A stretch of 64,000 nt of DNA, from positions 1,602,278-1,666,277 of the forward strand of contig CAWUHX010000019.1 of NCBI GenBank assembly GCA_963922205.1, written 5' to 3'. Shown one piece after another: positions 10,259-13,388 of this stretch (positions are counted from its first letter, which is position 1; every line of letters begins with the position of its first letter). The stretch is from Romanomermis culicivorax. Taxonomy: Eukaryota > Nematoda > Enoplea > Mermithida > Mermithidae. The notes beneath the pieces are model-generated. The model was not told the origin of the DNA. It was given only the letters and a program-made list of their open reading frames with translations, and did not search any database. The translations under genes and the position numbers were made by a program.

Positions 10259-11706
10259 TGTTGTCCTATCCGATTTCGTCTGGCCTTTGGAGGTCTCCTT
10301 TGCGTCTGACTCTTTGCAGTCTCCATCCTCGTCTGACTTTTCGTAGTCTCCGTTCTCGACTTTTGACTTGTCAAATATTCGGGGGTCGTGGTCTCCTCGG
10401 CCGTGTCGTAGGCTTCGTTTTCAGAACCGGTGGCGGCCGCTCCTTGTTGCTGCTGACCTTGAGCTGCAAGTCTGCGTGCTTTGGACTTACCTATCCTTTT
10501 TCTGGGCCTTACCTTTTCTCTGGCCAAGTGTCGGATAAATTTTTCCGACATACCTTCAGCTAACATCTGCCAAACTTTATCTGGGGAATAAACTCCAGGG
10601 GTTCCTTCCTCTGCAATTCTTCCCCTCTTCATCAGCTCTGTTGCTGCAATAGCTGAATATGAGCTATCATCGGCTAATGCCTGCTCCTTCAGCTTTCTCT
10701 GAATTGCCCTCTGATGCAGGAATTCCTGCTGCGTCAGTCTTCTTTGTTCTTGGATTTTGGCCTGTAGGGCCTCCTGCTTCGCTTGTCTATCATGATCCTT
10801 AGGATCTTTGGCTTTCACAGGTATCTCCTGGGATGCCTCTTGCATCTTTTCCAGTCTGACATCAATTCCCGACATTTTTGTGACTGCTTCATCAATTTGA
10901 GTCTGGATTTTCTCCTCCTCAACAGCCTGTTTCTGAGTCTTGACCTCCATCGCATCCTTGTTTTCTGATGTCTGGCCCTCAGATTCCAGAATTTCGCCTT
11001 CTTCTTCTTCATCTACATCCTCCTCTGACCTGGACTCAGAGTCTGAATTTCGTATCTTGGGCAAAAGCTGCTTTACTTTAGGTGGCAAAACAGCTGGTGC
11101 TGGAGGTACCGATTGCATAATTGTGACGACTTCTGGCTCAGGCTCGGCCGGCTGCTGTATCTGAGCTACCTGAGTCGGCTGTGCTACCGCTGGTTGCATT
11201 GGTGGCAGCACCACGACTACTACTGCAGCTGCTTGCGTAGCAGCAGTGTCCAAAGCTGGTTGTGTAGCTTTGACCACTGGCACTGGCACTTGCGGCTGCG
11301 TTTTAACTTGTCCCGTCCCTCCGGCTTGCGCCGTTTGGGAAGTAGAGGGACGATTTAATGGTACTTTAGATACCAACTCACTGGCTGGGGTATAAGTTAG
11401 TGTATACCCAGGCATCTCCGAAGCAATTGTTCTCTCCCGGAAGCTTTTGCTGACAAACTCCGGTCTGAGCTCGAGCGGGTTGTGTGGTGCATAGGTATTG
11501 GATAATCGGTCGGCGATGCATCTTCCATCATGGGATACCGCAGTCCCGGTGTCAAAGTCTCGAAGCCTACATAGTAAAAGGTTACATAATAGTAAGGGTT
11601 TACCTTGTAGGCTTCGTCCTTCAATAGCGATTTGTCGTCGCCAATTTGCAATATTTCCTTGGCTTCTCGAAATCGTAGCGGGACCAATCCGAACCGATTT
11701 TGCCAC
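10114..11706 (-). CDS. Retrotransposon accessory ORF B: Pro/Gln-rich, acidic and coiled-coil region
   Basis: 530 codons, open throughout, but the true coding part probably starts near 11480 where it takes over from ORF A by a -1 frame step. The first 100 codons lie over ORF A and read less naturally. The centre is Pro/Gln/Ala/Val-rich linker, then an acidic Ser/Glu tract (DVDEEEEGEILESEG), then a long Lys/Glu/Gln-rich coiled-coil-like stretch, then a basic patch (KVRPRKRIGKSKARR). This layout resembles viral phosphoprotein or assembly scaffolds in composition only. The final ~30 codons past 10310 are likely out of frame with the ancestral protein. Confidence 0.55.
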   Translation of the reverse strand: MAKSVRIGPATISRSQGNIANWRRQIAIEGRSLQGKPLLLCNLLLCRLRDFDTGTAVSHDGRCIADRLSNTYAPHNPLELRPEFVSKSFRERTIASEMPGYTLTYTPASELVSKVPLNRPSTSQTAQAGGTGQVKTQPQVPVPVVKATQPALDTAATQAAAVVVVVLPPMQPAVAQPTQVAQIQQPAEPEPEVVTIMQSVPPAPAVLPPKVKQLLPKIRNSDSESRSEEDVDEEEEGEILESEGQTSENKDAMEVKTQKQAVEEEKIQTQIDEAVTKMSGIDVRLEKMQEASQEIPVKAKDPKDHDRQAKQEALQAKIQEQRRLTQQEFLHQRAIQRKLKEQALADDSSYSAIAATELMKRGRIAEEGTPGVYSPDKVWQMLAEGMSEKFIRHLAREKVRPRKRIGKSKARRLAAQGQQQQGAAATGSENEAYDTAEETTTPEYLTSQKSRTETTKSQTRMETAKSQTQRRPPKARRNRIGQQCPLQLLRTLRREWYRKPAERLVRHLARVNPCLPAIPQEVANLREAFW

Positions 11707-13388
11707 GCATATACCCCTTTTTTAGATGGAAAGCGGGGTTCCCACGGCGGTAGCATTGCTGCTAGCTCTAAATAATAAGCCAGGCGGTCGCCTGACTTCC
11801 AGGACATTCGCTCTATCATTTCTTGTCCTTTTCTAGTATAACTATTTAAAAAGTTATAATTCAGCAAAGCACTAGTTTCGTAATCGCACTCCGCTCTTGA
11901 GTGAGGCCATGCCAAGTGATAGGCCAATGGCATGAATTTACAGATGACCTCTAACTCCGCAAAGTTTCGCTCATCTAACATACCTGAGATTTTGGCCAAA
12001 TTTGGCGTATAAAAATTGGTCTTATAGGCCTGTCTGTGACCTTCAATACCCACTGGGTAGTGGTTGTTCGCTGAAAACACTTCTTCAGGAATTTGATCGG
12101 GCTTCCCGGCCTGTTGCCAGTATGGCTTGGCGTTTTCATATAACATCAAAGAAATCTTGCCATCTAAATCCCAATAGGTTCCACCTGACTTGAGATCATC
12201 CTTTGCGATGTTAACCCAGTCTGGTATCTGAATGTCCTGGATTTCGTCGTGATCACTGTCTTCAGTGTACCCATCGTCCTTCATCCGTTTATTATCTCTC
12301 GGGAGCAGTGGATAAAAACCACTTGGCAGTTGAACTCCCTGAGGATGGACGGGATTACACTCCGTGGGTGCAGTATAATAACCGGTGTTATTTCCCTGCA
12401 TTTGTACGGCCCAACGGTTGTACATTTCACATTTCATCATGTGATAGACCATGTTAGGCTGTACCTGATCGGTTTCCATGACTGGGGTGCCTAGCCCCAT
12501 TTCTCTATTTACGTTGCCTGGAATCATTAAATACTGTTGGTAAAAGTGTAAGGCAATGGTATTGATCTGTTTGGGATCAACCTTGTCATGATCGAAAATC
12601 TGCATTTGCATTAGCAGCTGATCGGCCATGCCATAGTGAATCGAGGCAAACATGACCAATAAAGAGTAATATGCATCTAGAGCAGCGTACCTAAGCTCTT
12701 CCGGCAATATACCTCTTTTGGCAAACCGATCACGGTTCGCCTTTAGTGAAAAGTCATATTGGTAAGGGCCCACGTCTATCAAATAGAATTCCGTGAACAG
12801 TCCCTTTAACCGGAAGGTTTCGGGACAAATGCCTGTCTGAAAACACTTTTTCTCCAGGTTAACCCCTACCATGGTTAGGGCGAAATGGTCTAAATTAAAG
12901 TACCGACCTTTGGTCTTCCTAAGACGTTCCCTTAAGGGCACAGTTTTATCTCTGTCCTTATTGTCTCGTCCTGCACCACATACGTTATAAATACTCACCA
13001 AATCCTCCAATACCGAGTATCCGGCAAAAAGCATGTCGGAATTCAGAAAATCGTGGAGGCTTGTGCATTCTCTGAGTTTCATGGTCGTGGTATCGATAAT
13101 GTACGTTTGACCATTGGTTAGCGCGAAGCTTACGTATCGGGCAAATTGTTTTCCCATCGGATTGTCGACCTCTCTCATTTTGAACAAGGCCGCGACTTTA
13201 TCCTGATGGACTTTTTCGATGTCAAATCCACAAACTGGTTGTCCTCTGAAGATTGAAATTTCTCGGATGAAGTGGAGTACCTGGCTGACTTTCCCGATGT
13301 CTACCATTCTAGGTTCCTTGGGATTAGCCGGCCAGTATCCAAATGTGGCTTTGAACCACTGATCCAGTTCGTGGATTCGCACGACCAT
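11397..13388 (-). CDS. Retrotransposon accessory ORF A: DEDDy 3'-5' exonuclease-like protein
   Basis: 663 codons, intact. Residues about 45-250 match the RNase D/WRN/EXD class of 3'-5' exonucleases. Exo I is GFDIE (Asp56, Glu58), Exo II is AGYSVLEDL (Asp129), and Exo III is RYAALDAYYSLL (Tyr234, Asp238). All four metal-binding acids and the DEDDy tyrosine are present, so catalysis on RNA or DNA 3' ends is plausible. The remaining 400 residues are Trp/Tyr-rich and unrecognised. The gene lies 1.2 kb behind integrase, on the same strand and between the same LTRs, where other elements carry env. The final ~35 codons run out of frame with the likely continuation in ORF B. It could be a captured host gene; the MUT-7-like exonuclease family of nematodes is one possible source (inference). 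Confidence 0.75.
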   Translation of the reverse strand: MVVRIHELDQWFKATFGYWPANPKEPRMVDIGKVSQVLHFIREISIFRGQPVCGFDIEKVHQDKVAALFKMREVDNPMGKQFARYVSFALTNGQTYIIDTTTMKLRECTSLHDFLNSDMLFAGYSVLEDLVSIYNVCGAGRDNKDRDKTVPLRERLRKTKGRYFNLDHFALTMVGVNLEKKCFQTGICPETFRLKGLFTEFYLIDVGPYQYDFSLKANRDRFAKRGILPEELRYAALDAYYSLLVMFASIHYGMADQLLMQMQIFDHDKVDPKQINTIALHFYQQYLMIPGNVNREMGLGTPVMETDQVQPNMVYHMMKCEMYNRWAVQMQGNNTGYYTAPTECNPVHPQGVQLPSGFYPLLPRDNKRMKDDGYTEDSDHDEIQDIQIPDWVNIAKDDLKSGGTYWDLDGKISLMLYENAKPYWQQAGKPDQIPEEVFSANNHYPVGIEGHRQAYKTNFYTPNLAKISGMLDERNFAELEVICKFMPLAYHLAWPHSRAECDYETSALLNYNFLNSYTRKGQEMIERMSWKSGDRLAYYLELAAMLPPWEPRFPSKKGVYAWQNRFGLVPLRFREAKEILQIGDDKSLLKDEAYKVNPYYYVTFYYVGFETLTPGLRYPMMEDASPTDYPIPMHHTTRSSSDRSLSAKASGREQLLRRCLGIH

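What the first reader, a model, noticed from the sequence alone, without database searches (positions are those of the whole stretch)
11397..13388. DEDDy 3'-5' exonuclease-like ORF inside a Gypsy-type LTR retrotransposon
Directly seen: an ORF between the two LTRs, behind integrase and on the same strand, carries Exo I GFDIE, Exo II YSVLEDL and Exo III RYAALDAYYSL with all catalytic acids. Known: these motifs define the RNase D/WRN/EXD exonucleases. I know of no Gypsy element with one. Possible roles (inference): trimming cDNA or tRNA primer ends, countering small-RNA silencing, or proofreading, in analogy to nidovirus ExoN. The exonuclease, acidic coiled-coil and RG-rich tail together make a virus-like cassette.
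Basis: partly seen in the sequence, partly recalled or inferred. Interest (0 to 1): 0.88.

Follow-up and report, generated by a model that had tools for sequence, protein, structure and literature searches.

The report
Exonuclease gene inside nematode retrotransposon
A jumping element of the Gypsy type in a mosquito-parasitic nematode carries, as a regular third gene, a protein that looks like an RNA-trimming enzyme, a combination already described in rotifers but seen here in two diverged families and kept intact by selection.

Summary
Window 11397-13388 (-) is an open 663-codon frame between 621-bp LTRs (606 identical), behind gag-PR-RT-RNaseH-integrase, with the DEDDy residues D56, E58, D129, Y234, D238. 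The host is Romanomermis culicivorax. The ORF is the front of a longer ORF3: 48 of 67 scored genome matches lie in open frames of 1,500 aa or more. It lies behind 39 of 40 examined integrase copies. A second family, about 22-26% identical here, has the same layout. All five residues are kept in 28 of 28 first-family sequences and in most of 30 second-family loci. Median dN/dS is 0.045. Single-sequence Pfam and PDB searches find nothing significant; a two-family profile matches RNase D over 141 columns, above 60 shuffles. The structure model is of low confidence. Novelty is limited: DEDDy ORF3s were published for bdelloid rotifer LTR elements in 2017 (PMC5408684). New here: nematode host, long ORF3, two diverged families, strong purifying selection. 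Activity and role are untested.

The parts
7514..8134 (-). 3' LTR of the element
   Evidence: 606 of 621 bases identical to the other LTR
21383..22003 (-). 5' LTR of the element
   Evidence: 5-bp flanking repeat GTTGC read by eye
18773..21303 (-). gag region (three frames in this copy; in copy C55 all gag and pol pieces match in one frame)
   Evidence: a CX2HX4HX4C motif read by eye
18176..18772 (-). aspartic protease
   Evidence: gag-asp_proteas E 2.8e-08
17166..17966 (-). reverse transcriptase (part)
   Evidence: RVT_1 E 7.5e-22 (on 17166-17924)
14628..17027 (-). RNase H and integrase
   Evidence: RT_RNaseH E 1.2e-27, rve E 1.1e-13 (on 14628-16985)
14088..14207 (-). inferred first exon of ORF3 (MGKGAR...), followed by a GTAAGT donor
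   Evidence: gene models P0001 and P0005 match here, in two frames in this copy; splicing not shown directly
13989..14042 (-). inferred second short exon of ORF3
   Evidence: P0001 matches down to 13975 and resumes at 13403
11397..13388 (-). the reported ORF: N-terminal part of ORF3 with the exonuclease-like domain and a middle part of unknown fold
12624..13277 (-). DEDDy exonuclease-like domain (residues about 38-255): D56, E58, D129, Y234, D238
10114..11721 (-). second frame of ORF3: proline/alanine-rich, acidic and Lys/Glu-rich part
   Evidence: P0005 holds pieces of the first and this frame
8909..10420 (-). third frame of ORF3: a conserved part and an R/G/Q-rich tail

Best explanation
ORF3 of this Gypsy-type LTR retrotransposon lineage of Romanomermis culicivorax is a polyprotein of about 1,500 residues whose front part is a probably active DEDDy 3'-5' exonuclease of the RNase D / MUT-7 kind, present in two diverged element families and kept by selection. 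It is probably made from a spliced short mRNA, as CERV of Cer1 is (inferred). I think the R/G-rich tail holds it on the element's RNA and the exonuclease trims or degrades RNA 3' ends there. Whether the targets are the element's own RNA or primer, or host small RNAs, is open; I put about 0.35 on each. Shown: anatomy, recurrence, conserved catalytic residues, purifying selection, profile match. Inferred: splicing, RNA as substrate, tail as tether, activity.
For: Five catalytic positions in 28 of 28 first-family sequences; second family, of the loci with a residue aligned: Exo I D 25 of 28, Exo I E 27 of 28, Exo II D 27 of 29, Exo III Y 30 of 30, Exo III D 29 of 30. The two families align along the whole ORF, score 256 (no shuffle control for that pair). 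hhalign of the two-family profile to nine bacterial RNase D or polymerase-exonuclease sequences: E 6.2e-4, probability 28%, 143 columns with Exo I, II and III in register; profile trimmed to the window's columns: score 36.5, E 1.3e-4, probability 54%, 141 columns, against at most 20.2 in 60 column shuffles and 19.0 reversed. PDB search with the profile: top of three rows is 'Exonuclease mut-7 homolog', at Exo III, E 0.56, not significant; the other two rows are unrelated, E 1.1 and 1.2. Selection: 378 pairs of 28 sequences, median dN/dS 0.045 among those with dS over 0.01. Integral gene: 39 of 40 examined integrase copies; 4 of 4 copies whose flanks I read have gag-pol before it and paired terminal repeats 97.9-99.8% identical. 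Leader exons. Precedent for the gene in LTR elements: PMC5408684; for a spliced nematode ORF3: PMC10309623 (passages).
Against: No PF01612 match and no significant PDB match of the single sequence (two unrelated rows, E 0.56 and 0.69); an HMM of the bacterial set does not separate the window's domain from shuffles (4 of 2,000 score higher), and single-sequence hhalign was no better than a control ORF. AlphaFold with 17 rows gave mean pLDDT 44.4, not usable as proof; no fold search could be run. Some copies in UniProt have Asn or Tyr for the Exo I Asp (P0001, P0003, P0005) or Glu for the Exo III Asp (P0002); 5 of the 14 extra cassette copies read have a stop in the 1.2 kb. No activity data; the window copy itself is frame-disrupted.
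Confidence: 0.68

Rival explanations
1. The domain is a DEDD pseudo-nuclease that only binds RNA, as PMC5408684 says of Maelstrom and EXD1, and serves packaging or localisation.
For: Exo I Asp is Asn or Tyr in three of the four further UniProt models covering it (P0001, P0003, P0005 against P0012); inactive DEDD relatives are known in the piRNA pathway (PMC5408684, part 3 read).
Against: 28 of 28 first-family sequences and most second-family loci keep the five residues.
Confidence: 0.13
2. ORF3 is mainly a structural or RNA-export protein (CERV-like or env-like); the exonuclease fold is incidental to its role.
For: Position between pol and 3' LTR, large size, low identity between families, likely splicing; CERV of Cer1 occupies this place in C. 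elegans (PMC10309623, passages).
Against: Catalytic residues are among the best-kept points between families; hydropathy gives no clear transmembrane segment, though one stretch of the third frame is borderline (19-residue mean 1.62).
Confidence: 0.15
3. Chance motif in an unrelated ORF, or a host gene that happened to land inside one copy.
For: Single-sequence profile searches are blank.
Against: Recurs at the same place in 39 of 40 examined integrase copies and in a second family; dN/dS 0.045; profile match.
Confidence: 0.03

Closest known systems
DEDDy ORF3 of bdelloid rotifer LTR retrotransposons Juno1/2 and Vesta2/5 (Rodriguez, Kenefick and Arkhipova 2017, PMC5408684; parts 1-3 of 5 read)
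   Same: LTR element with gag, PR-RT-RH-IN and a downstream ORF3 encoding an RNase D-like DEDDy exonuclease
   Different: Here a nematode host; ORF3 about 1,500 aa with long extra parts; strong purifying selection between copies, where the rotifer paper reported no clear departure from neutrality within the genome for the ORF3s it sequenced; no dUTPase found in the PR and RT frames scanned here; their motif is reported as changed to DEED.
Cer1 of C. elegans with CERV (PMC10309623, passages)
   Same: Nematode Gypsy element with a large ORF between pol and 3' LTR, spliced mRNA, RNA-related role
   Different: CERV is said to have no obvious homology outside nematodes; no exonuclease is mentioned in the passages seen
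MUT-7 / Nibbler, RNase D, WRN exonuclease
   Same: Exo I, II, III residues with the DEDDy Tyr; profile match to RNase D; a MUT-7 homologue is the top but not significant PDB row
   Different: Longer stretch between Exo II and Exo III; below Pfam detection; lies in a mobile element
Terminons (giant Penelope-like elements of rotifers; PMC6431247, passages)
   Same: Retroelements that can carry DEDDy exonuclease ORFs
   Different: Penelope-like RT class, endonuclease-deficient, not LTR elements

Membership tests
DEDDy 3'-5' exonucleases | Exo I Asp and Glu (DxE) | tested here: met
   28 of 28; 25 and 27 of 28 in second family; three UniProt models lack the Asp
DEDDy 3'-5' exonucleases | Exo II Asp | tested here: met
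   28 of 28; 27 of 29
DEDDy 3'-5' exonucleases | Exo III Tyr-x3-Asp | tested here: met
   28 of 28; 30 and 29 of 30; P0002 has Glu
DEDDy 3'-5' exonucleases | match to Pfam DNA_pol_A_exo1 (PF01612) | tested here: not met
DEDDy 3'-5' exonucleases | profile-profile similarity to RNase D | tested here: met
   with a two-family profile; single-sequence comparisons fail
DEDDy 3'-5' exonucleases | DnaQ-like fold | tested here: inconclusive
   mean pLDDT 44.4; strand/helix order at residues 52-142 fits by eye; fold search not answered
DEDDy 3'-5' exonucleases | metal-dependent 3'-5' nuclease activity | not testable with these tools
   needs a bench assay
Ty3/Gypsy LTR retrotransposons | paired LTRs with target-site duplication | tested here: met
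   by eye
Ty3/Gypsy LTR retrotransposons | order PR-RT-RNaseH-IN | tested here: met
Ty3/Gypsy LTR retrotransposons | RT tree placement in a named clade | not tested
   no reference RT set gathered
Juno/Vesta-type DEDDy elements of rotifers | dUTPase between PR and RT | tested here: inconclusive
   no dUTPase in the PR and RT frames scanned; 17967-18175 not scanned
Juno/Vesta-type DEDDy elements of rotifers | ORF3 in the same DEDDy clade as the rotifer ORFs | not testable with these tools
   no rotifer ORF3 sequence came up in the searches made

The most novel reading that the evidence does not exclude
The lineage carries a MUT-7/Nibbler-like exonuclease, the type of enzyme that takes part in small-RNA silencing in animals, and uses it, held on its RNA by the R/G-rich tail, to destroy or shorten the host small RNAs aimed at it: a retrotransposon-borne suppressor of RNA silencing shared by two diverged element families.
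Probability: 0.2. Interest if true: 0.88.

Novelty: new variant of a known kind. Interest (0 to 1): 0.6.

Why it matters
The rotifer paper left open whether such exonucleases help their elements at all (PMC5408684, part 3). Here many similar copies, some with nearly identical LTRs (up to 99.84%), and strong purifying selection on the exonuclease-bearing part suggest that they do, in a host whose genome and RNA have been sequenced. It also suggests that DEDDy ORF3s are not a rotifer peculiarity.

Tried and rejected
Chance insertion: rejected by recurrence. Of 57 scored integrase places, 25 have a listed ORF3 match downstream by my hand matching; of the other 32 I read 1.2 kb for 15, and 14 have it (5 of these 14 with one stop); L080 lacks it in the stretch read; 17 were not examined. 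Single-sequence Pfam and PDB searches: nothing significant. Bacterial RNase D HMM against the window alone: no signal; single-sequence hhalign: no better than a control ORF. The first local hhalign script timed out. Viral contigs: 6 stretches matched a pattern, none encodes a relative. AlphaFold without relatives: mean pLDDT 32.2; with 17 rows 44.4; both too weak to use. Pfam rows below cut-off for these and other frames (for example Abhydrolase_9, DUF4350, DUF4268, BSP_II) were not used. UniProt's name 'DUF4216 domain-containing protein' for P0001 is not borne out by the Pfam scan. A genome search for further subfamilies did not complete.

Dropped rows: 6 of 30 second-family loci had no copy of the exact Exo III string searched and were left out of that listing (all 30 are), 6 of 30 had stops in the core and were left out of the dN/dS, and second-family values were printed for 15 pairs only; its core is the P0016-like stretch, which starts just before Exo III; first-family single values were printed for chosen pairs, the median is over all with dS above 0.01; one search used 17 chosen rows, leaving out frame-broken ones.
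Full report
WHAT IS THERE. The window holds an LTR retrotransposon on the minus strand, 7514-22003. Its LTRs match over 621 bases with 606 identical. Reading the flanks by eye, a 5-bp repeat GTTGC borders it (4 bp if the LTR is trimmed to TG...CA). Pfam finds a retroviral-type protease, RVT_1, RT_RNaseH and integrase core in the order PR-RT-RH-IN, so it is of Gypsy type by layout; I built no RT tree. The protein relatives found are all from Romanomermis culicivorax, and one of these UniProt proteins, P0016, matches the window's own genome at 99% identity over its whole length, so the window is taken as that mermithid nematode. 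The assembly has 359 Mb in 595 contigs.

THE ORF. The reported ORF at 11397-13388 is exact. Exo I is GFDIE with D56 and E58, Exo II is GYSVLEDL with D129, Exo III is RYAALDAYY with Y234 and D238. It is not a complete gene. In the genome search (67 matches scored of 3,982 candidates, the window's own included) 64 of 67 end at residue 632 or 633, and 48 of 67 lie in an open frame of 1,500 aa or more, two of them with a stop inside (my counts). In two copies whose flanks I read, the counterparts of the second and third window frames follow in one frame. So in relatives 11397-13388, 10114-11721 and 8909-10420 correspond to one ORF3 of about 1,520 aa. The window copy is frame-disrupted there and in gag-pol. 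Relatives lack the start Met. Gene models P0001 and P0005 match two short exons upstream, at about 14207-14088 and 14042-13989, before the ORF resumes at about 13402, with splice-like borders. One published annotation of this species used RNA-seq (PMC10879605, passages); whether these UniProt models come from it I do not know, and I have seen no reads, so splicing is inferred.

DOES THE CASSETTE BELONG TO THE ELEMENT. Four of 14 UniProt models with cassette pieces also hold gag, PR or RT pieces (P0001, P0006, P0010, P0015). The integrase search scored 57 places (of 10,254 candidates); 25 have an ORF3 match a few kb downstream on the same strand by my hand matching. Of the other 32 I read 1.2 kb at the expected place for 15, and 14 have it, 5 of them with one stop. 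So 39 of 40 examined; 17 not examined. I read both flanks of two first-family and two second-family copies: all four have gag, PR, RT and RH-IN before the ORF and a direct repeat pair around the whole, 99.03% over 617, 99.84% over 620, 99.59% over at least 489 and 97.90% over at least 429 bases (the last two pairs are cut by the ends of the stretches fetched). The near-identical repeats point to recent insertions.

A SECOND FAMILY. P0016, found at E 0.43 only, is a relative: 29 of 99 identical, E 2e-8 in a pairwise comparison, whole-sequence score 117 against a maximum of 64 in 500 shuffles; for its C-terminal part alone 1 of 500 shuffles reaches the score. It opens a second family with 103 scored copies (of 3,021 candidates). 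Its member L046 aligns to the window ORF from end to end with score 256 (no shuffle control). Its RT is 51-53% and RH-IN 43-44% identical to the window's, its exonuclease region about 25-26% where tblastn aligns it. ORF3 thus came in before the two families split, or was exchanged between them; I have no tree to tell.

IS IT A DEDDy EXONUCLEASE. Against: no PF01612 match in any sequence scanned (only sub-cut-off rows such as DUF4350 at E 0.008 for L046), no significant PDB row for the single sequence, no separation from shuffles with a bacterial HMM (4 of 2,000 higher), no signal in single-sequence hhalign. For: all five residues in 28 of 28 first-family sequences (window plus 27 of the 66 other scored copies), and in the second family, of 30 loci with 1-2 lacking an aligned residue at some positions, D 25 of 28, E 27 of 28, D 27 of 29, Y 30 of 30, D 29 of 30. 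With 17 rows from both families hhalign matches a profile of nine bacterial RNase D or polymerase exonuclease sequences over 143 columns, E 6.2e-4, probability 28%, and places Exo I, II and III on their counterparts. Trimmed to the window's 300 columns the score is 36.5, E 1.3e-4, probability 54%, 141 columns; 60 column shuffles reach at most 20.2, the reversed profile 19.0. A search of PDB sequences with the profile puts a MUT-7 homologue first of three rows, at Exo III, with E 0.56. AlphaFold with these rows has mean pLDDT 44.4; its strand and helix order over residues 52-142 fits a DnaQ-like fold by eye, no more. Fold searches did not complete. I conclude that the domain is a divergent DEDDy exonuclease; probability about 0.9.

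IS IT FUNCTIONAL. Pairwise dN/dS over about 630 codons in 28 sequences (378 pairs) has a median of 0.045 among pairs with dS over 0.01, with dS up to 0.82 in the pairs printed; 15 second-family pairs over a 402-403-codon stretch that includes Exo III but not Exo I and II range from 0.07 to 0.17. 63 of 67 scored first-family matches have no stop inside. This is purifying selection on the protein while the elements were active. Against universal catalysis: among four more UniProt models covering Exo I, P0012 has Asp but P0001 and P0003 have Asn and P0005 Tyr, and P0002 has Glu at the Exo III Asp; these may be decaying copies or families with a non-catalytic version.

HOW IT PROBABLY WORKS. Inference: a spliced mRNA yields a polyprotein with exonuclease first, a middle part of unknown fold, an acidic and Pro/Ala-rich stretch (14 Asp/Glu in 30 residues) and an R/G/Q-rich tail (11 RG or GR in 119 residues). 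Hydropathy shows no clear transmembrane segment; one stretch of the third frame is borderline at 1.62. The tail may hold it on RNA; the exonuclease then trims or degrades RNA 3' ends. Own-RNA or primer processing and attack on host small RNAs seem about equally likely to me. cDNA proofreading has no support here.

WHAT IS KNOWN. Bdelloid rotifer LTR elements carry DEDDy ORF3s, acquired at least twice, with intact residues reported and function unknown (PMC5408684, parts 1-3 of 5 read; also passages of PMC6431247, PMC5718144, PMC6338049). Cer1 of C. elegans has a spliced ORF3 product, CERV, needed for RNA export (PMC10309623, passages). In the rows listed by my searches for an exonuclease ORF in nematode or other LTR elements (searches show only 15 of 239 and 20 of 98 papers) I saw none for a nematode; only open-licence papers are held. 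So I rate this as a new variant of a known kind.

Noticed in passing
window 24664-29742 (-): A single open frame of 1,692 aa with no Pfam match above cut-off; by eye it has GGDD-type motifs. Unusual as an intron-free ORF in a nematode.
   Followed up: no
window 7340-7380 and 22855-22895: G+C-rich inverted repeats, 93% complementary, outside the two LTRs; P0014 matches near 22793-22891 and 36880-37067, so perhaps a dispersed repeat.
   Followed up: no
window 6590-7198: Long tandem array of 12-base spacing with open frames in several phases.
   Followed up: no
window 43991-44449 (+): Forkhead DNA-binding domain, E 1.6e-32.
   Followed up: no
window 50365-51005 and 53439-54044: Collagen-like Gly-Pro-rich frames, by eye.
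   Followed up: no
P0003 and P0004 (UniProt models): Gene models fuse pieces of this element to a Tsr3 C-terminal domain and to a mitochondrial carrier; probably annotation artefacts, or exonised insertions.
   Followed up: no
P0006, P0009, P0013 against window about 13272-13287 and about 11400-11350: Three models pass from the first ~40 residues of the ORF straight to the second frame, as if a splice form without the exonuclease existed.
   Followed up: partly
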